Source: Roseateles aquatilis (GTDB lineage Bacteria > Pseudomonadota > Gammaproteobacteria > Burkholderiales > Burkholderiaceae_C). Taken from it: DNA of 64,000 bases. The notes beneath the pieces are model-generated. The model was not told the DNA's origin. It did no database searches and saw only the letters and a program-made list of their open reading frames with translations. The position numbers were made by a program, and so were the translations under genes. Below are positions 2,266 to 16,582 of this stretch, one piece after another (positions within the stretch are counted from its first letter, which is position 1; the number at the start of each line of letters is the position of its first letter). The DNA lies in NCBI RefSeq assembly GCF_002205645.1, contig NZ_NIOF01000013.1, positions 62,001 to 126,000 of the forward strand. Reading direction: 5' to 3'.

Positions 2266-3870
2266 TTGGACCTGCATCACCTCCCCCAGCAAGCCCGCGC
2301 CGCGCTCCAGTCCGGCGACCCCGCCGCCGCTCAGGCGCCTGGCGAGGAATGGCTGCTCATGGCGCTCGAGGAGCGGGACGACGCGCAGCAGGCGCAGGCG
2401 CTGCTGCACCTGGCACGCTGCGACCGCGCGCTGCACCGGCCCGGCGACGCCCGCGGCCGCAGCGAGCTCGCCGCGCGGCTGTTCCGGCAGCAGGGCGACG
2501 CGTCCGGCGAGGCCGGCGCGCTGTCGGTGCTGGCACACAGCGCGTCGCTGGCCGGCCATCACGAGGAAGCGATCGAGGCCGCCTTGCTCGGCCTGCGCCT
2601 GGCGCAGCAACGCGGCGACGGCGCGGCGCTGGTGGTGGCGTTGCAGGACCTGGGCGCGTGCCATGTCTGGGCCCGGAATTTCGACAAGGCCGGCGAGGTG
2701 CTGCGGCAGGCCGCCGACGCGGCCAATGCCTGCAAACCGCGCTTGAGCCCGCTGACCGCCTGCCTGTGGCTGGCGATGAGCACGCTGCTGGCGCTCGCCG
2801 GTGATCGCGAGCAACGTGGCCAGTTGCCGCCGCTCGGCGCGCTGGAAGGGCACCTGATCAACGCGCGCCACCTGCTGCCGGAAGGCGACGCGGAAACCCG
2901 CTGCTGGTGGACGCTGATGCAGACGCTGGCGCAGATCTGGAAGGGCGCGTCGGCGCTGGCGCAGCCGGAGCTGCAGCAGGCGCTGATGCTGCTGCCGGAG
3001 CAGGAGCGCCACTGGCTCGCCGCGCTGGCGGGCTGGGTGCAGGCGGAGCTGGCCTGGGCGCGGCGGCTGTGGCCGCAAGCCCGGCGTGCGGCCGCGCAAC
3101 TGGTGACGCAGGCCGACGCGGTCCAGCACGAGCCGCTGGCGCAGCTCGGCGAGCTGATTGCCAGCCAGATCGAGGAACAGCAGGGGCAGCCGCAACGCGC
3201 GCTGCAGCGCATGCGCGCCCTGCGCGAACGCGAGACGCGCGTGCGCATCGCCAGTCTCGCGAGCCGCGAGGAAACGGTGCAGTGGCAGCTCGATGCGCGC
3301 CGCAGCGAGCGCGACCGCGCGCAGCTCGCCGACGAGGCGCAGCGGCTGGAGAAGCTGTCGATGGAGGATCCGCTGACGGGCCTCGCGAATCGACGCAGCT
3401 TCGAGGCGCATGCCCGGGCGCAATTGAAGGCCGGCGGCGTGGTGAGCCTGGCGCTGATCGATGTCGACCACTTCAAGCAGGTCAACGACCGGCACTCCCA
3501 CCTGGTCGGCGATCAAGTGCTGAGCCAGATCGCGCGCCTGATGCGCCAGCATGTCCGCGAACACGACATCGCCGCGCGCCTGGCCGGCGACGAATTCGTC
3601 CTGCTGCTGCGCGGCGCGACGGAAGAGATCGCGCAGCAGGCCTGCCGCCGCCTCGACGAGGCCGTGCGGCGCCACGACTGGCGCGGCGTGTCCGAAGGAC
3701 TGCGGGTGAGCATCAGCATCGGCGCGTCGCAGCGCCAGGACGGTGACACGCTCGAATCGCTGCTCGCGCGCAGCGACGCGGCGATGTACGCGGCCAAGCG
3801 GGAACGGCAGGGCGCGGCCATGGCCGGCGTCACGCTGATGGACGACGACGAGGGCGATTCGACCGATTGA
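2266..3870 (+). CDS. TPR-containing diguanylate cyclase (GGDEF)
   Basis: The product is 534 aa and should make cyclic di-GMP from two GTP. Residues about 1-330 are helical and Ala/Leu-rich and read as TPR-like repeats. A short coiled-coil linker (about 325-360) leads into a GGDEF domain (365-525). The active-site loop is AGDEF at 440-444, a common active variant of GGDEF. An RxxD inhibitory site (REHD, 431-434) sits five residues upstream, so product feedback inhibition is expected. There is no membrane segment, so the protein is probably cytosolic. The best-fitting start is TTG at 2266; the next ATG is at 2359, so the N-terminus is uncertain. It lies 24 bp after lysR. Confidence 0.85.
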   Translation: MDLHHLPQQARAALQSGDPAAAQAPGEEWLLMALEERDDAQQAQALLHLARCDRALHRPGDARGRSELAARLFRQQGDASGEAGALSVLAHSASLAGHHEEAIEAALLGLRLAQQRGDGAALVVALQDLGACHVWARNFDKAGEVLRQAADAANACKPRLSPLTACLWLAMSTLLALAGDREQRGQLPPLGALEGHLINARHLLPEGDAETRCWWTLMQTLAQIWKGASALAQPELQQALMLLPEQERHWLAALAGWVQAELAWARRLWPQARRAAAQLVTQADAVQHEPLAQLGELIASQIEEQQGQPQRALQRMRALRERETRVRIASLASREETVQWQLDARRSERDRAQLADEAQRLEKLSMEDPLTGLANRRSFEAHARAQLKAGGVVSLALIDVDHFKQVNDRHSHLVGDQVLSQIARLMRQHVREHDIAARLAGDEFVLLLRGATEEIAQQACRRLDEAVRRHDWRGVSEGLRVSISIGASQRQDGDTLESLLARSDAAMYAAKRERQGAAMAGVTLMDDDEGDSTD

Positions 3871-3906
3871 TCGGCCGGAATCGACCGACCGGATCGATTC
3901 GGTCGA
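3859..3906. repeat. Clustered inverted repeats after the cyclase gene
   Basis: TCGACCGA occurs at 3859-3866 (within the end of the gene) and 3881-3888. Its exact complement TCGGTCGA is at 3899-3906, forming an 8-bp stem with a 10-nt loop. There is no T tract, so this is at best a Rho-assisted terminator. The remaining bases up to 4073 hold GTTTC-N6-GAAAC, which might belong to regulation of the following toxin-antitoxin pair. Confidence 0.35.
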
Positions 3907-4073
3907 CTGCGCAGGCGGCCGGGATGGCCGTGTTCATCGAGGTTTGCGCGCGTGTGTTTCGAATCAGAAACGCAAAAACGTGCGATTCGACATCGGCGCG
4001 GAAGCAACAGGTTGTCGGTTGACCCGTCTCTAGACTGACCGCCTTCTTTTGCAATCGCCTGTGAGGAGGCCGC

Positions 4074-4409
4074 ATGAACCGGATCGTCGATACCCCCGCC
4101 ATCACGCACGACGCGCACGCGCCGCCCATGCTCGCGGCGGCCGTTCAAACGCTCGATGCGTTCGACGTCATTCCCGGACCGTACTCGGTCACTGCCCGAC
4201 GGCAGTTGGAGGCCATCAATCGGCTCATCCGCCGCAGGTCCGAGCGGCGACTCGCGCGTCGAGAGGGCAAGGGTTTCTGGGCCCACGACATGCCGGAAAA
4301 AATGCTGGCGCTCTATTCGAGGCATCCAGAGCTTCTGGAAGAGCCTCCCGGCGGGGCCGATGTCGTGACCTGGATCAGGGAGGCTCGCGATGACGACCAT
4401 CGTGGTTGA
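4074..4409 (+). CDS. Putative antitoxin partner of PIN toxin
   Basis: This is a 111-aa protein starting at ATG 4074 behind a clear GAGGAGG ribosome binding site. It overlaps the downstream PIN-domain gene by 20 bp, the arrangement expected of a type II antitoxin-toxin pair. I do not recognise the family. The N-terminal half lacks an obvious AbrB or ribbon-helix-helix signature. Residues 45-75 form a very basic helix (a run of Arg around RLIRRRSERRLARR), which could bind DNA. The C-terminal half is acidic and proline-containing, as expected for a toxin-neutralising tail. The antitoxin function rests on context only. Confidence 0.6.
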   Translation: MNRIVDTPAITHDAHAPPMLAAAVQTLDAFDVIPGPYSVTARRQLEAINRLIRRRSERRLARREGKGFWAHDMPEKMLALYSRHPELLEEPPGGADVVTWIREARDDDHRG

Positions 4410-4812
4410 TGCCAGCGCGGCACTCGGCTGGATGGTGTTGAGCACCGACAGCGAGGCGGTGCATCAATACAGCAGCCGGCTAGCCGATGCCGCGTTGAGC
4501 AATGGAGCGCAGTTGATCGCGCCCTATGTCTTCAATGCGGAATGCGCGCACGCGATGTTGAAGCGAAGCCGCGCCGAGGCATGGCCACGGAACAGGATTG
4601 AGGCTTACGCCGAGCTGATCGACCTCTACGAAGTCGGACTTGATGACGACATCCTGCCTTTGCCCGAGCATGTCGATTGGGCCGTCCAACATCACGTGCA
4701 AGGCTATGACGCGTTGTATCTGGCGCTTGCAATCGAGCGCGGCGCCAAGTTGGCAACCACGGATCGCGGGCTTCGCGCCGCCGCCGAACGCGCCGGCGTC
4801 GAACTGTTCTGA
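4390..4812 (+). CDS. PIN domain ribonuclease (VapC-like toxin)
   Basis: A 140-aa single PIN domain. All four acidic metal-binding residues are present: D7 in IVVDAS, E51 in FNAECAH, D107 in YDALYLALA and D125 in TTDRGL. VapC toxins use such residues to cleave tRNA or rRNA with Mg2+. The start ATG lies inside the upstream gene after GGAGG, giving a 20-bp overlap and likely translational coupling. The YDALYLALA motif is typical of bacterial VapC proteins. The gene is convergent with the sigma-factor gene, 11 bp away. Target RNA unknown. Confidence 0.85.
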   Translation: MTTIVVDASAALGWMVLSTDSEAVHQYSSRLADAALSNGAQLIAPYVFNAECAHAMLKRSRAEAWPRNRIEAYAELIDLYEVGLDDDILPLPEHVDWAVQHHVQGYDALYLALAIERGAKLATTDRGLRAAAERAGVELF

Positions 4813-4823
4813 CCCCCAGGGCC

Positions 4824-6116
4824 TCAGTGCCCCTGCTCCCTCGCCCGCTTGAGCAGCAACGCCCGCTCCCGCTCATTGCTCGTCATCCCGGCCGCGCGCT
4901 CGAATTCCACCTTCGCCTCGGCATTGCGCCCGAGCTTGGCCAGCAGATCGGCGCGCACGCTGGGCAGCCAGTGATACTGCTTCAGCGCCGGATCGTCCAT
5001 CAACTGATCGACCAGCTCCAGCCCCAGCGCCGGGCCGAAGGCCATGGACAGCGCCACCGCGCGGTTGAGCTCCACCACCGGCGACGGATGCCGGATCGCC
5101 AGCGCTTCGTAGAGCGCGGCGATGCGTGTCCAGTCGGTGTCCTCGGCACGATGCGCCCGCGCGTGGCAGGCCGCGATCGCCGCCTGCAGCGCATAGGGGC
5201 CGAGCCCGCGCCCTTCGCCGGACTGGGTCGCCAGCTCGTCGGCCTTCGTCAATGCCGCGAGCCCGCGCCGGATCAGCAGGCCGTCCCAGCGCGCCCGGTC
5301 CTGCTCCAGCAACAGCACCGGCTGGCCCTGCTCGTCGACGCGCGCCGCGGCGCGCGAGGCCTGCAGCTCCAGCAGCGCCTGCAGGCCGTGCGCCTCGGAC
5401 GCCTGAGGCGCCAGGTTGACCAGCATGCGCGCCAGCCGCAGCGCCTCGTCGCAGAGGTCCTTGCGCATCCACTGCTCGCCGCTGGTCGCCGTGTAGCCCT
5501 CGTTGAAGATCAGGTAGATCACCTCCAGCACCGAGCCGAGCCGCTCCGCCAGCAGCGCGCCGCGCGGCAGGTCGAAGGGCACGCGGGCCTCGCCCAGCGT
5601 GCGTTTGGCGCGGACCAGCCGCTGCGCCACCGTCGGCTCGGATTGCAGGTAGGCCCGCGCGATCTCCGCGGTCGACAGGCCGGCGACGAGCTTCAGCGTC
5701 AGCGCCACGCGCGCCTCCAGGCTCAGCACCGGATGGCAGGCGCAGAACATCAGCCGCAGCACGTCGTCGCCGATCTCGCGGGCGGCGCGGTCCTCGTCCA
5801 GGGTGTTGACGAAGTCGGGCACGATCATGGCCTCGCGCGCATCGAGCTCATGGCCGAGTTGCTCCAGCTTGTCGCCGCTCAGCTTCGCGTGCCGCAGCCG
5901 GTCCAGCGCGCGGTGCTTGGCGGTGGTCATCAACCAGGCGCCCGGCTTGTCCGGCAGTCCTTGCTGGGGCCAGGTCTCCAGCGCCGCCACCAGCGCGTCC
6001 TGCGCCAGTTCCTCGGCCAGCGACACGTCGCGCGTCAGCCGCGCGACGGCGCCGATGATCTTGGCCGATTCCAGACGCCAGACCGTCGAGATCGCGCGAT
6101 GGATGTCCTCGGGCAT
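4824..6116 (-). CDS. ECF sigma factor with C-terminal TPR-like extension (ECF42 type)
   Basis: This 430-aa protein begins with sigma-70 region 2 (about 12-85, with DVSLAEELAQDALVAAL and the core-binding and promoter-melting helices). Region 4 follows (about 120-175, with a LKLVAGLSTAEIARAY helix-turn-helix). About 250 residues of helical extension resembling DUF6596/TPR follow. That architecture and its length are those of the ECF42 group. ECF42 genes are characteristically linked to DGPF-motif YciI proteins, exactly as here: two DGPF genes and a VOC gene lie upstream on the same strand. No anti-sigma factor is nearby, and the C-terminal extension is thought to take over regulation in this group. 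It is the last gene of the putative operon. Confidence 0.9.
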   Translation of the reverse strand: MPEDIHRAISTVWRLESAKIIGAVARLTRDVSLAEELAQDALVAALETWPQQGLPDKPGAWLMTTAKHRALDRLRHAKLSGDKLEQLGHELDAREAMIVPDFVNTLDEDRAAREIGDDVLRLMFCACHPVLSLEARVALTLKLVAGLSTAEIARAYLQSEPTVAQRLVRAKRTLGEARVPFDLPRGALLAERLGSVLEVIYLIFNEGYTATSGEQWMRKDLCDEALRLARMLVNLAPQASEAHGLQALLELQASRAAARVDEQGQPVLLLEQDRARWDGLLIRRGLAALTKADELATQSGEGRGLGPYALQAAIAACHARAHRAEDTDWTRIAALYEALAIRHPSPVVELNRAVALSMAFGPALGLELVDQLMDDPALKQYHWLPSVRADLLAKLGRNAEAKVEFERAAGMTSNERERALLLKRAREQGH

Positions 6117-6158
6117 GAAGGGCTCGATTCGAAAGGAAGGGTTTCGGGCGGGGCCGCC

Positions 6159-6569
6159 TCAGGCGCCCGGGAATTGCGTGATGTCCATGTACATCAGCTC
6201 CCACATGTGCCCGTCCGGATCGGCATAGGCCTGGGAGTACATGAAGCCCATGTCCTGCGGCTCGCGCGGCACCGTGCCGCCAGCGGCGACAGCCTTGGCG
6301 ATCAGCTCGTCCACCTGCGCGCGGCTCTCGCAGGACAGGCAGGTCAGCACTTCCGTCGACGCGTGCGCGTCCGAGATCGCTCGCGGCGTGAAAGTCTGGA
6401 AGAAGGATTCCACCAGCAGCATCGCGTAGATGTCATCCGAGATGATCATCGACAGCGCCTGCTCGTTCGAGAACTGCGGATTGAACTCGTAACCCATCGC
6501 GCTGTAGAAGCGCCGGGTGCGCTCGATGTCCTTGACGGGCAGGTTCACGAAGATTTGTTGGTGACGCAT
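6159..6569 (-). CDS. VOC family protein (glyoxalase-like)
   Basis: A 136-aa vicinal-oxygen-chelate fold protein. The N-terminus QIFVNLPVKDIERTRRFYSAMGYEF is the typical first beta-alpha-beta unit. The C-terminus holds the second (MGFMYSQAYADPDGHMWELMYMD), with the conserved DPDGHxWE motif. It resembles the lactoylglutathione-lyase-related family often found beside ECF42 sigma factors. The ATG at 6569 has AGGAG upstream; longer frames further upstream lack one. It lies 42 bp before the sigma-factor gene and 95 bp after a YciI gene, so co-transcription is likely. Substrate unknown. Confidence 0.88.
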   Translation of the reverse strand: MRHQQIFVNLPVKDIERTRRFYSAMGYEFNPQFSNEQALSMIISDDIYAMLLVESFFQTFTPRAISDAHASTEVLTCLSCESRAQVDELIAKAVAAGGTVPREPQDMGFMYSQAYADPDGHMWELMYMDITQFPGA

Positions 6570-6664
6570 GGAAGGCTCCTGAAAGCGTTGAGGAAGGAAT
6601 GGAATGGGGCGAGTGGAGGGGAGGGCGACGAGTCCGGAGGATCGCCGCCCGTTCGAGCGGCCGA

Positions 6665-7078
6665 TCAGTCCCCGAGCCCGATCGCGCGGAAGCGGTTCAT
6701 CGATTCGGCGGCACCGACCTCCTCGATCTCCTTGACGCGGCGGATCTCGATCTCGGCGGCGACGCGCCGGCCGTGCGGCGCCGGGAAGCGGCGCGACCAT
6801 TCCAGTGCCTCCTCGCGGGATCGCACCTGGATCACGGTGAAACCGGCGATCAGTTCCTTGGTTTCGGCGAAGGGACCGTCGACGATGCGTCGCGTGCCGT
6901 CGGCGGCGTGCTGGACGCGCCAGCCCTCGCGGCTGGGGTGCAGTCCCATGCCCTCGAGCAGCACGCCGGCGCGGGCCAGCTCCTCGTGAAAGGTCGCCAT
7001 CTCATCGATCAGCGCCTCGGTCGGCGCGTCGCCGGCCTCGGAGCCGGGTGTCGCCTTGATGATGATCATGTATCGCAT
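6665..7078 (-). CDS. YciI family protein (DGPF domain)
   Basis: A 137-aa YCII-related protein with the diagnostic DGPFAETKE motif (about residues 62-70) and the MRYMIIIKA start usual for the family. AGGAG precedes the ATG at 7078. DGPF proteins are small cytosolic dimers of uncertain function, repeatedly linked to ECF42 sigma factors and thought to be among their targets. This is the second gene of a four-gene set (YciI, YciI, VOC, sigma) on the minus strand. Confidence 0.88.
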   Translation of the reverse strand: MRYMIIIKATPGSEAGDAPTEALIDEMATFHEELARAGVLLEGMGLHPSREGWRVQHAADGTRRIVDGPFAETKELIAGFTVIQVRSREEALEWSRRFPAPHGRRVAAEIEIRRVKEIEEVGAAESMNRFRAIGLGD

Positions 7079-7186
7079 CGGGTTCTCCTGGGGCCGCCCT
7101 GGACACGGGGCGGCTACACAGGCACGACGATGCGGACGCCGGGATTTCGACACCCCCGGCCCCTGCGGCGCAAAAAAACCGTCCGC

Positions 7187-7555
7187 TCAGGACGCCTTCG
7201 ATTCCTCGTAACACGGCACCAGGGTGCGCACCTCCACGGTGGCCCATTCGGCCGCCGGGCATTCGCGGGCGATCGCGAGGGCCGCCTCCAGCGTGTCCAC
7301 GTTCAGCCAGAAGAACCCGCCGACCATCTCCTTGGCCTCGGCGAAGGGGCCGTCGATCGTGGCGACCCGCCCCTCGCGCTTGCTGACGCGGGTCGCGCCG
7401 TTGACGGATTGCAGCGACTGCGCGGCGCGCAGCAGGCCCTGCGCGGCCAACTGCTCGGCGAAGGCGGTCATCTCGGCATAGACCTGGCGGCCTTGCTCGG
7501 GCGTGCGCGCCTCGCGCTGGCCGACCGGTTCGTTGATCAACAGGATGTAGCTCAT
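7187..7555 (-). CDS. YciI family protein (DGPF domain)
   Basis: A 122-aa paralogue of the next gene, with the DGPFAEAKE motif and a MSYILLINEP start. GGAGA lies just ahead of the ATG at 7555. It is the promoter-proximal gene of the YciI-YciI-VOC-sigma set. If the sigma factor autoregulates, its promoter should lie in the 194 bp between this gene and the divergent histidine kinase. I could not identify an unambiguous ECF -35/-10 pair there. Confidence 0.87.
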   Translation of the reverse strand: MSYILLINEPVGQREARTPEQGRQVYAEMTAFAEQLAAQGLLRAAQSLQSVNGATRVSKREGRVATIDGPFAEAKEMVGGFFWLNVDTLEAALAIARECPAAEWATVEVRTLVPCYEESKAS

Positions 7556-9800: not shown

Positions 9801-10949
9801 ATGCAGTCGCTGGACCCCCGCTCGATCACTGTCATGACCGCGTTGATGGCGGCGGTGATGGGGGCCGTGCTGCTGGGCATGCGCCGCAACTACCCGTCGG
9901 GCATCCAGGGCCTGCTGCTCTGGGCGCTGGCGCCGATGGCCTGCGCGGCGTCGGCCGGCGTCTACGCGGCGCACGGCTTGTTGCCGGAGATCCTCATCGC
10001 TCAGACCGGCAACGCGCTGCTGCTGACCGGCTGCGGGCTGTTCTATTTCGGGACGCAGCGTTTCCTGGAGCGGCCGGTGACCTGGCGCTTCTGGGGCGGG
10101 ATCGCGCTGCTCAGCCTGGCGCTGCTGACGTGGTTCTTCATCCGACCCGACTACCGCGTCCGCATGGTCTTGTTCACCGGGACCATGACGGCCTGCGTGC
10201 TGGCGCATGCCCGGCTGCTGTTGTGGCACGGCGCGCGCACCGAACGGGGGTTCGCGGCGTGGCTGTGCATCGCGACGCTGCTGCTGCAGGCCGTCGTGCT
10301 GGTGCTGCGCGGCGCGGCGACGTTCTGGGTCGACACCGCCGATGCCTCGCGTTTCACGCCGACCTTCGTGCAGAACGCCTACATCGCCAGCTATTGCTTC
10401 AGCGTGCTGCTGCTCAGCGTGGGCGTGCTGCTGATGTCCAGCGAGCGCGTCCGGCAGGAGTTCGAGCTGCTCGCCACGCGTGACGTGCTGACCGGCGCGC
10501 TGACGCGGCGCGCGCTGCTGCAGGCCGGCGGCGAGGAGTTCGACCGCTGGCGCCGCTACGAGCATCCGCTGTCGCTGCTGCTGCTCGACCTCGACCACTT
10601 CAAGCAGGTCAACGACCGCCACGGACATCTGGTCGGAGACCGGGTGCTGGCCGGATCGGCCGCGGCGATCCGGGCGGCGCTGCGCGGCACCGACCGGCTG
10701 GGCCGCTACGGCGGCGAGGAGTTCGTCATCCTGCTGCCGTCGACCGGCGCCGACGCGGCGCGGGCCTCCGCCGAGCGCGTGAGGACGGCGCTGCTCGCGC
10801 ACGAGCCGGCGCCCGGTGTTCCGCCGTGTTCAGCGAGCATCGGCGTGGCCTGGGCGCAGCCCGGAGACACCAGCCTGGACACGCTGCTCGCGCGTGCGGA
10901 CGTGGCGCTCTATCGCGCGAAAGCGAACGGGCGGAACCGGGTCGAGTGA
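9801..10949 (+). CDS. Membrane-bound diguanylate cyclase (GGDEF)
   Basis: A 382-aa cyclic-di-GMP synthase. The N-terminal half has about six or seven hydrophobic helices (residues 10-205) without a recognisable ligand-binding motif, like MASE-type sensor regions. A GGDEF domain follows at about 215-380. The active site is GGEEF (304-308) and the inhibitory RxxD site is RGTD (295-298). The LDLDHFKQVNDRHGHLVGD motif with its metal-binding Asp is intact, so activity and feedback inhibition are expected. It is 39 bp after the LytTR regulator; whether it shares that transcript is unclear because a candidate promoter lies between. Confidence 0.9.
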   Translation: MQSLDPRSITVMTALMAAVMGAVLLGMRRNYPSGIQGLLLWALAPMACAASAGVYAAHGLLPEILIAQTGNALLLTGCGLFYFGTQRFLERPVTWRFWGGIALLSLALLTWFFIRPDYRVRMVLFTGTMTACVLAHARLLLWHGARTERGFAAWLCIATLLLQAVVLVLRGAATFWVDTADASRFTPTFVQNAYIASYCFSVLLLSVGVLLMSSERVRQEFELLATRDVLTGALTRRALLQAGGEEFDRWRRYEHPLSLLLLDLDHFKQVNDRHGHLVGDRVLAGSAAAIRAALRGTDRLGRYGGEEFVILLPSTGADAARASAERVRTALLAHEPAPGVPPCSASIGVAWAQPGDTSLDTLLARADVALYRAKANGRNRVE

Positions 10950-11010: not shown

Positions 11011-12258
11011 TCACTTGAAGAACCAGTACCCCACCGCGATCGCGCCCACGAGCCCGACCAGGTCGGCCAGCAGGCCGCAGGTCAGCGCATAACGCGTCTT
11101 CTTGATGTTCACGCTGCCGAAGTAGACGGCCAGCACGTAGAACGTCGTCTCGGTCGAGCCCTGGATGATCGCGGCCAGCTTGCCCTCGAAGCTGTCGACG
11201 CCGTAGGTCTTGAGCACGTCCACCATCAGGCCGCGCGCGCCGCTGCCCGACAGCGTCTTCATCAGTCCGATGGGCAGCGCCGGCACGAAGTCGGTGGGCA
11301 GGCCCAGCGCGCCGACGCCGGCGGCGATGCCGCGCACGATGTAGTCCATGCAGCCGGTGGTGCGGAACACCGAGATCGCCACCAGGATCGCCACCAGGTA
11401 CGGAATGATCTGCACCGCGACGCCGAAGCCCTCCTTGGCGCCCTCGACGAAGGACTCGTAGACGTTGATGCGGCGCCAGGCGCCGACGGCGATGAACGTC
11501 ACGATGATGCTCAGGATCACGCCGCTGCCCAGCAACCCGATGTACTGCGACATCTGCTCCGGCGGATAGCTGTGCAGCCAGCCGAAGACGGCGGCCATGA
11601 TCGCGATGAAGCCGCCGACGAACACCAGCACCGGCGCGCTGAACAGGTTGATGCGCTGCACCCAGGCCACCGCGACCAGCCCCGACATGAACGAGATGAA
11701 GGTCGCGACCAGCGTCGGCAGGAAGATGTCCGCGGCGTTGAAGCCGACCAGCCCCTGGTCCACCGCCATCGCCTGGCGGATCGCGATCACCGAGGTCGGG
11801 ATCAGCGTGATGCCGGCGGTGTTCAGCACCAGGAACATGATCATCGCGTTGCTGGCGGTGTCCTTGCGGGGATTGAGCTCCTGCAGCTCCTTCATCGCCT
11901 TCAGGCCCAGCGGCGTGGCGGCGTTGTCCAGGCCGAGCATGTTGGCCGAGAAGTTCATCACCATCGAGCCGCCGGCCGGATGACCGCGCGGCACCTCCGG
12001 GAAGATGCGGCCGAAGAAGGGCCCCATCGCGCGGGCGAACAGCTGGATCACGCCGGCGTTCTCGCCGATCTTCATGATGCCCAGCCACAGGCTCATCACC
12101 CCGACCAGCCCGAGCGAGATGTCGAAGCCCGTCTTGGCGGTGTCGAAGATGCCGGTCAGCACCTGCGTGAAGATCGTCAGGTCCCCTTGCAACAGACGCA
12201 CGAGGGCCACCGCGAAGCCGATCAGGAAGAACCCGATCCAGATGAAGTTGAGAACCAT
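11011..12258 (-). CDS. SpmA-SpmB fusion, nucleoside recognition domain membrane protein
   Basis: A 415-aa polytopic membrane protein with about ten hydrophobic segments and two 'nucleoside recognition' (Gate) domains. The first (residues about 40-170, with NMLGLDNAATPLGLKAM) matches spore maturation protein A. The second (about 265-400, with GSTETTFYVLAVYFGSV) matches SpmB. In Bacillus these are separate genes needed for spore core dehydration. Fused forms occur widely in non-sporulating Gram-negatives, where the role is unknown. The gene stands alone, convergent with the upstream cyclase gene and divergent from the pseudoprotease pair. Confidence 0.9.
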   Translation of the reverse strand: MVLNFIWIGFFLIGFAVALVRLLQGDLTIFTQVLTGIFDTAKTGFDISLGLVGVMSLWLGIMKIGENAGVIQLFARAMGPFFGRIFPEVPRGHPAGGSMVMNFSANMLGLDNAATPLGLKAMKELQELNPRKDTASNAMIMFLVLNTAGITLIPTSVIAIRQAMAVDQGLVGFNAADIFLPTLVATFISFMSGLVAVAWVQRINLFSAPVLVFVGGFIAIMAAVFGWLHSYPPEQMSQYIGLLGSGVILSIIVTFIAVGAWRRINVYESFVEGAKEGFGVAVQIIPYLVAILVAISVFRTTGCMDYIVRGIAAGVGALGLPTDFVPALPIGLMKTLSGSGARGLMVDVLKTYGVDSFEGKLAAIIQGSTETTFYVLAVYFGSVNIKKTRYALTCGLLADLVGLVGAIAVGYWFFK

Positions 12259-12519: not shown

Positions 12520-13977
12520 ATGATCGATCTTGTCTCCCGCCCTCTCCCGGCCATCGGCCGACGTTTCCTTGCCACGCCGCGCCGGACCGCCTGCTGGGTG
12601 GCAGCCGCCTTGCTGAGCACGTCGCTCGCGGTGAGCGCATCCACCGACGCGAGGTGGCCCGCGCCCTCGGCGCGGCTCTATCGCATCCCGGCCTGGGCCT
12701 TGGGCGATGACAGCTGCTCCGCGACCCTGATCACGCCACGCGTCGCGCTGACGACCTACTACTGCGGCGGCCCGGCCGTGCTGCCCGGAGGCAGCGGCCG
12801 TATCACCTTCGCGCAGCGCAGCACTGGACGGTCGTTCGAAGGCCGACTGGTGAACGACCCGCAGCTTCAGGCCGCGCCTCCTGCAGGGCTGTTGATGATC
12901 GTCTTCGATCAGGCCTCCGAGGCGCGAGCCGCGGTCGCGGCCGGCCGGGCCTCACCACCGGCCGAGGCGGCATCGCAGCCCTTGCGCTCATCGGGAGCGC
13001 CGGTGGCGAGTTATCGCCGCGAGGCCCGGTTGCTCCGAGACCCAACCGGCGCCAGGCGCGATGACCGCCGCGCGGGCACCCGCGTCTATGCCTATGGACC
13101 GCGGTCCGTGCAATGGCGCTCCGGCACGGGCCCCACGGTTCACCTCGGCTATCAGCTGGTGGCCGGGGACGGGCAGTTGCAGCGTGTGGGCGCCCCCGCC
13201 GACATGCCCTTGACCTACCGTTCGCTGGCGTACTTGCGCAGTTCGGAGCCGGGGCGTTTCCTGACCACTGCGCGGCCGTGGGCGAGCGGCGACGATCTGC
13301 TGGGCGTGGCGACGACCTTGGCGCTGGGCGGCCGCGACGCGGCGGCGGCCGACGAATGGCTGCTGCCGCTGGTCGGCAGCGCCGCCGACGGCATCACGCG
13401 GCACGCGCTCCCGTCGCCCACGCCGCAGCGTCCGACGGTCGAGCCGCCGTTCGTTCGGGCGGACAGCGGCGCGGGGCTGATGGCGACGCGTCCGCGTCCG
13501 TCAGATGAGTTCTACGTGCCCGGCGCGCTGGTGGGTTTGTCGACGGCGCCAGGCCATTTGCACATTCGACTGGTCAGGCACTGGCCGGACGTCCATCGCG
13601 TCATGCTGGCCGAGGGCCTGCGCGACGATGCCGCCCATCTCGCGCGTCGAGTCCTCGCGCTCAAGACCTGGGAGCAAGGCGGACGAGGGGTTCCCGGGGA
13701 TGTGTATGGCCGGCGCGATGCCGTCACCGGCGAGCAGCGCTTCTATCGGCTGCGTGCGCTCTCGGCCGACGGAACCTACTGGAGCCTGCCTGACGACGAC
13801 GCCGACAACGTGTGGTGGGAGTCGCTGGGGACCGCGCTGCCGACGCGACATGAGGTCTTGAACTGGCGCCCACCTGGGGCGTTCCCGTCCACGGCCCCGT
13901 CAATGCCGGCGACCGACTCGGCGGAAGGCCCCGAGTCTGCAGGGACGAATGAGTCGGGGCACGGAGTGCAATCATGA
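12520..13977 (+). CDS. Secreted trypsin-fold protein with altered catalytic triad (first of pair)
   Basis: A 485-aa secreted protein. GGAG sits 6 bases before the ATG at 12520; an N-terminal signal peptide ends near VSAS (about 41). The fold reads as trypsin-like (S1). DSCSATLITPRVALTTYYC matches the C-x-GTLI...VLTAAHC region, with both Cys (66 and 82) kept but Tyr (81) in place of the catalytic His. The Asp segment (GLLMIVFDQ) lacks the expected Asp. The Ser loop reads ADSGAG (S316), close to GDSGG. LVGLSTAP...HWPDVHRVM matches the trypsin C-terminus. Residues 406-450 form an extra module ending in WWESLGTALPTRH. Probably inactive as a protease. A related gene follows directly. Confidence 0.75.
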   Translation: MIDLVSRPLPAIGRRFLATPRRTACWVAAALLSTSLAVSASTDARWPAPSARLYRIPAWALGDDSCSATLITPRVALTTYYCGGPAVLPGGSGRITFAQRSTGRSFEGRLVNDPQLQAAPPAGLLMIVFDQASEARAAVAAGRASPPAEAASQPLRSSGAPVASYRREARLLRDPTGARRDDRRAGTRVYAYGPRSVQWRSGTGPTVHLGYQLVAGDGQLQRVGAPADMPLTYRSLAYLRSSEPGRFLTTARPWASGDDLLGVATTLALGGRDAAAADEWLLPLVGSAADGITRHALPSPTPQRPTVEPPFVRADSGAGLMATRPRPSDEFYVPGALVGLSTAPGHLHIRLVRHWPDVHRVMLAEGLRDDAAHLARRVLALKTWEQGGRGVPGDVYGRRDAVTGEQRFYRLRALSADGTYWSLPDDDADNVWWESLGTALPTRHEVLNWRPPGAFPSTAPSMPATDSAEGPESAGTNESGHGVQS

Positions 13978-14031
13978 AGTCGAAGCAATCCACCTGCTCG
14001 ACATGTCCTCCGACGGGGCACGCGCGCAGGC

Positions 14032-15645
14032 GTGGCCGGCATGCTCGGCCTGGCGATGACGTGCGGCGCCAACGCCGATCCGAACCCCGAGGCGGATGTC
14101 CCGCTCTGGGCGTTTGGCAACGGCAGTTGTGCCGGTACGCTGCTCACGTCGCGCGTTGTGCTGAGCCACGCCGCATGCTTTGCAGAACTCGGCGTGGCCG
14201 GGTCCGGCGAGCCGCCGACCTTCAAGCCTCGTGGCGACATGAAGCAGATTCGGACGGGGACGACTCATCCCGGCAAGGTGGTGCAGGACAGCCTGGATGC
14301 GGCGAAGGTGCTTCGCGCGGACCCGGCGCCTCTGGCATCGCTGCTGTTGGACGAGCCCGTCCGCGCGCCCAAGGCGGGCGATGCTGGAAACCGCAAGGAG
14401 AAGCGCTTTGTCAGGATTCCCACCTACCGCTTCGAACAACGCTTGTTGAGGGACGTTCCGCTTTCGGCAACGACCGGGGCGGATGCCCCGACGCTGGGTA
14501 CTCGCCTGAGTTTCTATAGAGGGAGCTTCAACACCTACGGTGCAACCGCCTATCGACATGCGACCTACGACTACTACTGGGACGTGGCGCTTGACGAGCG
14601 AGGGTGGGGGTTTGTGGACCGTTCGTCCTTGTCTGAGCGTCCTTTGGTGTATCGCTCGGTGAGTCGCATCCGGCAGCAGGAGCCAGAGCGCTTCATAGGC
14701 GATGTTCCGCGCTTGACGCGCTCATCGGGGAGGGCCACCTCCCCGCCAACGTCCGAGGAGAAGGAGGGCGTGCGGTCGCTGCTGAGCCGCTATCACTTGG
14801 GAGGCCTGCTCCGCGCGCAATTCGGTACGCCCGTGATGCCGGACCGGGCCGTGGATGATCGGGTCATCGCCATCGTGGGCATGGGCAAGGATCGAACGCC
14901 GGTGCATCTGCGTCCCCACCGGGGTTCCATCACCGGCACCTACGGTGTCAGAGTCATGCCTCCCTTCCAATCTGGAGACAACGGCGCCGGATTGCTGGCG
15001 TGGCACGACAAGTCGGGCAAGGACTTGCTGGTGGGCGTCGTGAGCGGCGGTGCTGCACTTCATTCGCGGATGAGCGCCCATTGGCCATGGGTGTATCGGA
15101 TGCTCATGAAGGACGGTCTGTCGAACGACGCCCGCCTGCTCGCGAAGCAGGTGCTGGGCGCACGTAGCGAGGACTGTCCGTCTGCGAAGTTCGGCGAGCT
15201 TTGCTTCCGGGTCGCCGAGGCGGGGCAGGCGCCTGCGTTCTTCCGGCGCGTTGCCGAGACGGGCGCTTCGCTGCCAGTGGATGGGCTGGACGGCGAGGAT
15301 TGGGAGTACCTCGGTACCGAATTGCCTGACCGTCATGCGGCGACGCGGCGCGTGAGCGCTTGGGATTCGGCCGACGCGTCCCAGGCACCGAAACCCGGCG
15401 CGACCTACGTGCGGTTCAATGGCAAGAGCAGGGTGGTGGAGTACTTCCAGCGGAAGACGTCCGTGAGGGCGCAGCCGATGGACGAGCTGCCATTGGACGG
15501 GCAAGGCAATAACGACTGGCTCTACCTGGGCACGGACCTTCCCTCGGTCCATGGGCGCGCTCTCGTGGATACGGAGCCGGACGACATCGCGCTCACTCCT
15601 CCAGGAATCGCTCCCGCACTTCCCGCATCTGCGGCAACGCCGTGA
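14032..15645 (+). CDS. Secreted trypsin-fold pseudoprotease (second of pair)
   Basis: About 537 aa from a GTG at 14032 (ATG alternative at 14041). It is a paralogue of the preceding gene in the same frame, separated only by that gene's stop. GSCAGTLLTSRVVLSHAACF matches the S1 His region but has Ala at the position before Cys49; a His lies two residues earlier (H46). The Asp motif reads ASLLLDEPV. The Ser loop is GDNGAG (315-320), so Asn317 replaces the catalytic Ser. LVGVVSGG...HWPWVYRMLM matches the trypsin C-terminus. Two copies of a 50-60-residue module follow (WEYLGTELPDRH, WLYLGTDLPSVH). The N-terminus looks incomplete as a signal peptide. Its 3' end overlaps the convergent HD-GYP gene by 53 bp. 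Confidence 0.7.
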   Translation: MAGMLGLAMTCGANADPNPEADVPLWAFGNGSCAGTLLTSRVVLSHAACFAELGVAGSGEPPTFKPRGDMKQIRTGTTHPGKVVQDSLDAAKVLRADPAPLASLLLDEPVRAPKAGDAGNRKEKRFVRIPTYRFEQRLLRDVPLSATTGADAPTLGTRLSFYRGSFNTYGATAYRHATYDYYWDVALDERGWGFVDRSSLSERPLVYRSVSRIRQQEPERFIGDVPRLTRSSGRATSPPTSEEKEGVRSLLSRYHLGGLLRAQFGTPVMPDRAVDDRVIAIVGMGKDRTPVHLRPHRGSITGTYGVRVMPPFQSGDNGAGLLAWHDKSGKDLLVGVVSGGAALHSRMSAHWPWVYRMLMKDGLSNDARLLAKQVLGARSEDCPSAKFGELCFRVAEAGQAPAFFRRVAETGASLPVDGLDGEDWEYLGTELPDRHAATRRVSAWDSADASQAPKPGATYVRFNGKSRVVEYFQRKTSVRAQPMDELPLDGQGNNDWLYLGTDLPSVHGRALVDTEPDDIALTPPGIAPALPASAATP

Positions 15646-16578
15646 CGAAGCGCTCGACCAGGGCCGGGTCGAAGTGCCGGCCCGCCTGCGCCTGCAGGTG
15701 CTCCACGGCCTGTTCGATCGGCCAGGCCGGCTTGTAGGGCCGCACGCTGGTCAGCGCGTCGAATACATCGGCGATGGCGACGATGCGCGCCTCGATCGGG
15801 ATCGACTCGCCGGCCAGCCCTTCGGGATAGCCGCTGCCGTCCCACTTCTCGTGGTGGGCCAGCGCGATGCGCCGCGCCATGCCGAGCAGGCCGGTGGTGT
15901 GGTCGCCGAGGATCTCGGCGCCGATGGTCGGATGGCGGCGCATCACCGTCCATTCGGCCTCGGTCAGCGGACCCGGCTTCTGCAGGATCGCGTCGGGGAT
16001 GCCGAGCTTGCCGATGTCGTGCATCGGTGCGGCATGCAGCAGGTCGTCGGCCTCCTGCTCGGACCATCCGGAGGCCAGCGCCAGCAACTGCGAGTAGTGG
16101 CTCATCCGCACGACGTGCCAGCCGGTCTCGTTGTCCTTGTACTCGGCCGCGCGGCCCAGGCGCTGGACGATCTGCAGGCGGGTCTCGCGCAGTTCCTCGG
16201 CGCGGACCAGCGACAGGTGGGTGCGCACCCGTGCCCGCACCACCGGCGGACTGATCGGCTTGGCGATGTAGTCGACGGCGCCGGCCTCGAAGCCCTCGGT
16301 CTCGTCGCGCGTGTCGGCCAGCGCGGTGACGAAGATCACCGGCGTCTGCCGCGTCGCCGGCTGCGACTTCAGCAGCCGGCAAACGTCCAGGCCGGACAGG
16401 CCCGGCATCATGATGTCCAGCAGAATGAGCTGCGGCGATTCCGTCCGCGCCAGCTCCAGCGCCTTGTGCCCGTCGCGCGCGAAGAGCAGCCGATAGTCGT
16501 CCTGCAGCACGTGGCGCAGCACTTGCAAGTTGGCCGGCTCGTCGTCGACGAGCAGCAGTTTGGGGCGATGGTCCGCCA

Positions 16579-16582
<4 letters not shown>
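15593..16582 (-). CDS. Response regulator with HD-GYP phosphodiesterase domain
   Basis: A 329-aa protein. It has a receiver domain (residues 6-125; acidic pair D13-D14, phosphoacceptor D56 in LILLDIMMPG, K108) and an HD-GYP domain (about 145-325). The latter has HD at 188-189 (MHDIGKLGIPD) and the GYP motif in HHEKWDGSGYPEGL (about 243-256). HD-GYP enzymes hydrolyse cyclic di-GMP. AAGGAG lies 7 bases before the first of two adjacent ATGs; the ATGA overlaps the kinase stop codon, so translation is coupled. Phosphorylation by the upstream hybrid kinase would tie an environmental signal to c-di-GMP breakdown. Confidence 0.92.

What the first reader, a model, noticed from the sequence alone, without database searches (positions are those of the whole stretch)
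12520..15645. Tandem secreted trypsin-fold proteins with different catalytic losses
Both keep the S1 core motifs (C-x-GTLI...C, LVG-S, HWP), but the first has Tyr at the catalytic His position with a near-normal DSGAG loop. The second has Ala at the His position and Asn317 in GDNGAG. Neither shows the DIALL Asp. This looks like a paired pseudoprotease system, perhaps inhibitors, binding proteins or decoys, kept as a coupled pair rather than one decaying gene.
Basis: partly seen in the sequence, partly recalled or inferred. Interest (0 to 1): 0.72.

Follow-up and report, generated by a model that had tools for sequence, protein, structure and literature searches.

The report
Variable arrays of dead trypsin-like proteins
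Two neighbouring bacterial genes encode trypsin-shaped proteins that have lost their cutting machinery; they belong to an unnamed, fast-changing family seen in some species of one genus, carry small modules otherwise found on secreted enzymes such as chitinases and surface proteases, and most likely bind something rather than cut it.

Summary
P1 (12520-13977) has Tyr, Gly, Ser and P2 (14032-15645) has Ala, Pro, Asn at trypsin positions His57, Asp102, Ser195. AlphaFold models of both retrieve S1 proteases; P2 His46 aligns with residue 55. The "coupled pair" reading is not supported. Both belong to a family (16 genes, 7 of 16 genomes of a Roseateles-like genus) without a Pfam or NCBIfam name. 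In 15 members examined His57 is kept in 0, Asp102 in 5, Ser195 in 3, two or more in none; the disulphide cysteines and Gly196 stay. The replacing residues drift even between orthologues. All genes lie at one chromosomal site, 0-5 copies per genome; four genomes have an empty 113-153 bp gap there. Members carry 1-4 copies of a ~50-residue module homologous to part of the SPATE protease Hbp (E 3.8e-13), also found on M66 and S6 proteases, a GH19 chitinase and PI-PLC-X proteins. Best explanation: secreted, non-catalytic binding proteins held on surfaces by these modules, with rapid copy turnover, comparable to scabies-mite inactivated proteases. In this genome the start codon overlapping P1's stop is out of frame with P2, so P2 itself may be decaying.

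The parts
12520..13977 (+). P1: pseudo-trypsin with signal-peptide-like N-terminus (Tyr/Gly/Ser at the triad sites) and one Hbp-type module at residues 392-441
14032..15645 (+). P2: pseudo-trypsin (Ala/Pro/Asn at the triad sites) with two Hbp-type modules, residues 398-432 (degenerate) and 455-504; GTG 14032 is the first in-frame ATG/GTG/TTG after the upstream stop
13974..13977 (+). ATGA: start codon overlapping the P1 stop, GGAG 7 nt upstream; its frame is not that of the P2 body, although a like overlap is in frame in Roseateles noduli (L032:13305)
   Evidence: sequence read directly
11011..12258 (-). nucleoside-recognition Gate protein, the constant left flank of the site
15593..16582 (-). 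response regulator with HD domain (HD-GYP-like), the constant right flank; its 3' end overlaps the 3' end of P2 by 53 bp, so the conserved C-terminal tail seen in relatives is its antisense
9801..10949 (+). GGDEF protein; in a relative (G007) a family gene lies between it and the Gate gene, not so here

Best explanation
P1 and P2 are members of a secreted pseudoprotease family. Shown: homology to S1 trypsins, absence of a usable triad in every member examined, free variation at the catalytic positions while the disulphide cysteines and Gly196 are kept, fusion to modules homologous to part of the class-2 SPATE Hbp, and tandem gain and loss of copies at one chromosomal site. Inferred: after export, the modules hold the protein on glycan-rich surfaces (chitin, cell wall or glycoprotein) and the trypsin-fold head binds a protein or glycoprotein ligand without cutting it, acting as adhesin, blocker or decoy; copy number and sequence change quickly because the target or competitor changes. 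Target and benefit are not shown.
For: Fold: by title, all 50 listed Foldseek rows of each model are S1-type proteases or homologues, or complexes holding one (136 and 123 matches at E <= 0.001 in all); [quoted passage not shown] Triad: His 0 of 15, Asp 5 of 15, Ser 3 of 15, two or more 0 of 15. Six trypsin ORFs from related genomes keep His and Asp 6 of 6 in the same alignment, but they had been picked with a pattern that asks for AA[HS]C-like and GDSG-like motifs, so the His count is partly built in; their Ser site did not align. Cys42 15 of 15, Cys58 14 of 15, Gly196 15 of 15; the His57 and Ser195 columns are more variable than 70% and 76% of 217 domain columns. Module: Hbp 501-542 at E 3.8e-13; elsewhere on M66, S6, GH19, PI-PLC-X and PAN proteins. 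dN/dS 0.44 and 0.41 in the two least saturated family pairs, against 0.037-0.064 for flanking genes of the same genome pairs. 13 of 16 N-termini show a hydrophobic stretch preceded by K/R (crude check, starts chosen by me).
Against: No ligand is known. Glycan binding by the module is inferred; [quoted passage not shown] Family dS is 1.8-3.8 times that of the flanks, so the pairs may not be simple orthologues; other family pairs give 0.28-0.53 at dS near or above 1, and flanks in other genome pairs reach 0.16. P2 has an out-of-frame overlapping start and no K/R before its hydrophobic stretch from GTG 14032; G009_b and G013 also fail the crude signal check. Models rest on 11 sequences, pLDDT 68 and 71; the second barrel has no significant sequence support.
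Confidence: 0.6

Rival explanations
1. Regulators of active proteases: the dead copies bind an active secreted protease, its substrate or its inhibitor and tune or shield it, as MamO does for MamE.
For: A bacterial precedent exists (PMC4794232, passages read); the own genome has six Pfam Trypsin matches.
Against: The site holds family genes, a Peptidase_M2 gene or nothing; no active trypsin was seen in the interval, though genes beyond the flanks were not scanned for one. Modules and copy turnover are not explained.
Confidence: 0.15
2. A decaying gene family: the triad was lost once and the copies now drift, being duplicated and deleted without function.
For: The start overlapping P1's stop is out of frame with P2; G013 carries a shortened P1-type gene; 4 of the 13 genomes with the interval on one contig have it empty; weak constraint.
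Against: The 15 members of A1 are open frames of 421-825 aa (one cut at 458 aa by a contig end) at pairwise identities down to 20%; dN/dS stays below 1 in all 10 family pairs tried; cysteines, Gly196 and module residues are kept.
Confidence: 0.17
3. A reshaped enzyme: a different chemistry or a triad supplied by other residues.
For: The fold and a GDxGxG-like loop persist in some members.
Against: All three catalytic columns vary widely with no substitute residue conserved; P2 His46 sits at residue 55 and the other members have other residues there.
Confidence: 0.04

Closest known systems
Scabies mite inactivated protease paralogues (SMIPP-S)
   Same: Multi-member, secreted, S1 fold, dead active sites; 3h7t is at ranks 4 and 6 in the structure searches. 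SMIPPs act by binding complement proteins (PMC5427104, passages read).
   Different: Animal parasite proteins; no relation by sequence search of P1 or P2 against PDB chains. That they lack an Hbp-type module is recalled, not tested.
Class-2 SPATE autotransporters (Hbp/Tsh, Pic; Peptidase_S6)
   Same: Trypsin-type head plus a homologous module (E 3.8e-13 to Hbp 501-542). [quoted passage not shown] that residues 501-542 lie in it is recalled, from no call.
   Different: SPATEs are active and carry a long beta-helix and an outer-membrane barrel; P1, P2 and the other A1 members match none of these Pfam models.
MamO and inactive MamE (magnetotactic bacteria)
   Same: Bacterial trypsin-like pseudoproteases kept after loss of catalysis (PMC4794232, passages read).
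   Different: From the HtrA/Deg branch, with a metal-binding role in MamO; not described there as a copy-variable array with Hbp-type modules.
S1 trypsin family (Pfam PF00089)
   Same: First barrel and Cys42-Cys58 pair; Trypsin matched in 5 of 15 members at E up to 1, at least one over the curated cut-off through 26 residues of its second trypsin-like domain.
   Different: No catalytic triad in any of the 15 members.

Membership tests
S1 trypsin-like peptidases | Chymotrypsin/trypsin double-barrel fold | tested here: met
   Foldseek best E 1.6e-5 (P2) and 7.1e-6 (P1), TM by target about 0.45-0.61 for chains under 300 residues; first barrel also by profile; second barrel by prediction and motif only (not significant)
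S1 trypsin-like peptidases | His57-Asp102-Ser195 triad | tested here: not met
   0 of 15 members keep two or more of the three; Ser site by motif register
S1 trypsin-like peptidases | Cys42-Cys58 disulphide pair | tested here: met
   Cys 15 of 15 and 14 of 15; the bond itself not tested
Class-2 SPATE / S6 | Hbp-type second-subdomain module | tested here: met
   E 3.8e-13 to Hbp 501-542
Class-2 SPATE / S6 | Peptidase_S6 domain, beta-helix and autotransporter barrel | tested here: not met
   no such Pfam match in P1, P2 at E 10 or in the 15 members at E 1
SMIPP-like multigene pseudoprotease family (as a way of working) | Several paralogues without triad, secreted, binding a target | tested here: inconclusive
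   paralogues and triad loss met; secretion inferred from a crude check; target not testable here
MamO-type pseudoproteases | di-histidine metal site and TauE domain | tested here: not met
   TauE part: no Pfam match in P1 or P2; metal site not examined

The most novel reading that the evidence does not exclude
A bacterial multigene pool of secreted pseudo-glycoproteases: trypsin heads freed from catalysis have become variable recognition domains, displayed on Hbp-type anchors and reshuffled by tandem duplication and loss at a fixed site, a free-living bacterial counterpart of the scabies-mite SMIPP system aimed at microbial or eukaryotic surfaces.
Probability: 0.33. Interest if true: 0.75.

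Novelty: new variant of a known kind. Interest (0 to 1): 0.5.

Why it matters
Dead S1 homologues were rare in a survey of prokaryotes (2 of 247 trypsin-like proteins in 91 genomes; PMC2605481, passages read). Here is a bacterial family in which none of the 15 members examined keeps a triad while the scaffold persists, copies turn over at one locus, and the module links it to surface-directed secreted enzymes. It gives a tractable system for asking how protease scaffolds become binding proteins, and it suggests that the Hbp-type module is a widely shared surface-targeting part.

Tried and rejected
Rejected: P2 His46 as a replacement catalytic residue. Rejected: a conserved C-terminal sorting signal. 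The tail of the PLPGTGPALPAPAAAR kind seen in several relatives is antisense to the 3' end of the convergent HD-GYP gene; one internal R. noduli gene is followed by a 113-bp, 92% copy of that gene end, which marks a tandem duplication. The P1 tail looks similar by eye but gave no significant DNA match. No sign of phage, plasmid or defence origin: no relative in viral contigs by peptide-pattern scan (P2; A3), none in plasmids (P1 only) or phages (P2 only), no PADLOC match at E 0.1. The G001 hit is by eye a KsgA-like methyltransferase (the chance P2 hit is of the same kind). Promoter and terminator scans gave nothing above shuffles. TPR rows were judged chance.

Limits: the family-wide and class-wide searches scored at most 4 candidates per genome and the named scan used two peptide patterns, so absence outside the genus is of lower sensitivity. 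Other-genus hits there were partial: first-barrel matches in 5 of 399 and 3 of 369 genomes, module-only in 1 of each. The profile and triad table use 15 of the 16 genes found; G013 (shortened) was left out. The two second trypsin-like domains of the double-domain proteins did not align and were dropped; by eye they have Asp at the His site. Entropy percentiles use columns filled in at least 12 of 15 rows. The control trypsins were 6 of the 7 ORFs that passed a motif pattern, so their His is partly by construction. A second-barrel hhalign was not significant. GH19 was confirmed by Pfam for one of three such proteins; L104 carries a module and has no Pfam match; L072, L106 and the two very long proteins were not scanned.

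Full report
What is there. Two + strand genes fill the interval between a nucleoside-recognition Gate gene (11011-12258, -) and a response-regulator/HD gene (15593-16582, -). P1 (12520-13977) and P2 (14032-15645) are paralogues, 35% identical, E 2.4e-20. Neither reaches a Pfam or NCBIfam model even at E 10, and none of the 15 members of the family alignment A1 matches NCBIfam at E 0.01. The own genome is about 6.4 Mb.

Fold. The A1 profile finds S1 proteases with the first barrel (plasminogen, E 1.2e-3), hhalign against six trypsins gives 94.6% and E 6.6e-8, and Pfam Trypsin appears in 5 of 15 members at E up to 1, at least one above the curated cut-off. AlphaFold2 models (P2 pLDDT 67.7, pTM 0.75; P1 71.2, 0.74; 11 sequences each) retrieve, by title, only S1-type proteases or homologues, or complexes holding one, among the 50 listed rows each; best E 1.6e-5 and 7.1e-6. 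Rmsd over the alignments is high (5.5-11.4 A), so the fold is assigned, not refined. The second barrel rests on the models and on the conserved GxGL...LVG...HxRxSxxWP stretch; its hhalign with trypsins puts P2 GDNGAGLLA on the GDSGG loop but is not significant (E 0.14).

Catalytic residues. In the profile alignment the triad sites read Y/G/S in P1 and A/P/N in P2. Over 15 members: His57 0 of 15 (R5, Y3, Q2, and A, S, L, D, V once each), Asp102 5 of 15, Ser195 3 of 15, two or more of three in 0 of 15. Six trypsins keep His and Asp 6 of 6, with the caveat that they were chosen by motif and that their Ser site did not align. Cys42 is 15 of 15, Cys58 14 of 15, Gly196 15 of 15; the His57 and Ser195 columns are more variable than 70% and 76% of 217 domain columns. 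P2 His46 aligns with trypsin residue 55. Loss of activity is a family property and does not distinguish the two window genes.

The modules. Members carry one to four copies of a motif of about 50 residues, GxxYxYxNPxxxxxExFRL...DGxYxxFPxDxxxNxxWxYLGT, behind each trypsin-like head (for G009_d they lie on the abutting contig). Its profile finds Hbp (1wxr) residues 501-542 at E 3.8e-13. [quoted passage not shown] that these residues lie in it is recalled. In other proteins the module sits on a GH19 chitinase, PI-PLC-X proteins, M66/TagA peptidases, S6 autotransporters and a PAN-domain protein. It is rare: 6 of 399 genomes of the order and 5 of 398 of the phylum, own genome included in each. This association points to glycan- or glycoprotein-rich surfaces. 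Against it, one paper suggests that SPATE lectin activity lies in domain 1 around the triad (PMC4176022, passages read).

Distribution and locus. In the genus, 7 of 16 genomes carry trypsin-fold members, 16 genes in all: G004 5, G009 4, G000 2, G007 2, and G013, G014, G015 1 each. Three more of the 16 matched by the module only. No full-length member turned up in another genus among 399 genomes of the family or 369 of the class (at most 4 candidates scored per genome). The Gate/HD-GYP interval could be measured on one contig in 13 of 16 genomes: 6 hold family genes, 4 are empty (113-153 bp) and 3 hold a Peptidase_M2 gene. In G009 the interval is split over two contigs whose ends share 49 bp; in G002 the markers lie on different contigs; G012 has no HD-GYP hit at the limit used. 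G004 has three genes in the interval and two beyond the Gate gene; G007 has one on each side. A 113-bp copy of the HD-GYP 3' end behind an internal G004 gene shows tandem duplication of the terminal copy.

Is it a pair? The tree gives a P1 type (P1, G004_c, G009_e, G013; 100/99) and a P2 type (P2, G009_d; 99/98). They co-occur in G000 and G009 only, in opposite order. Within the P1 type the His site is Y, R, R and the Ser site S, E, A. So neither the pairing nor the substitutions persist. In the window the ATG that overlaps the P1 stop, with a GGAG 7 nt upstream, is out of frame with the P2 body, whereas a like overlap is in frame in R. noduli. P2 may start at GTG 14032 with a poor signal peptide, or be on the way out, or the assembly may be wrong.

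Selection. For the two least saturated family pairs (G004_b/G009_a, G015/G014) dN/dS is 0.44 and 0.41, with dN 0.25 and 0.34; the flanking genes of the same genome pairs have dN 0.005-0.029 and ratios 0.037-0.064. In the three other genome pairs tried the flanks give 0.08-0.16, and the other family pairs give 0.28-0.53 at dS near or above 1. Family dS is 1.8-3.8 times that of the flanks, so exchange or hidden paralogy may contribute. The family evolves very fast but is not free of constraint.

How it most likely works. Export by a Sec-type signal (crude hydropathy check, 13 of 16 N-termini; P2 uncertain), anchoring by the modules, and binding by the dead trypsin head. Known precedents are scabies-mite SMIPPs, which bind complement proteins (PMC5427104, passages), and MamO, a bacterial pseudoprotease (PMC4794232, passages). 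Searches for a previous description of such a bacterial family (20 of 85 listed, 5 of 5, 10 of 32) listed none that fits by title or abstract; the library holds open-licence papers only.

Noticed in passing
window 13974-14032: Start codon overlapping the P1 stop, with a GGAG 7 nt upstream, lies in a different frame from the P2 body; a like overlap is in frame in Roseateles noduli.
   Followed up: partly
L091, L092, L093 (G001, G008, G011), interval between Gate and HD-GYP genes: Three related species carry a Peptidase_M2 (angiotensin-converting-enzyme-like) gene at exactly this site.
   Followed up: partly
L070, L071, L072, L074, L075, L078, L102, L103, L105, L110, L115, L116, L117: The Hbp-type module occurs on GH19, PI-PLC-X, M66, S6 and PAN proteins (Pfam run on most, not on L070, L071, L072); P1 and P2 match no Pfam model for it, and L117 gave a weak match to PF24077 (IgA0_D2).
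   Followed up: yes
L073 (G000:C43:20001-32000) 3150-7196: The window's own genome encodes a very long protein with one such module; function not examined.
   Followed up: no
L032:14847-14959: A 113-bp, 92% copy of the HD-GYP gene end behind an internal array gene, a footprint of tandem duplication.
   Followed up: yes
L077 (G013) 3012-3794: A shortened P1-type gene: no clear signal peptide, and the region matching P1 residues 209-370 is missing, while part of the first barrel and the module remain.
   Followed up: partly
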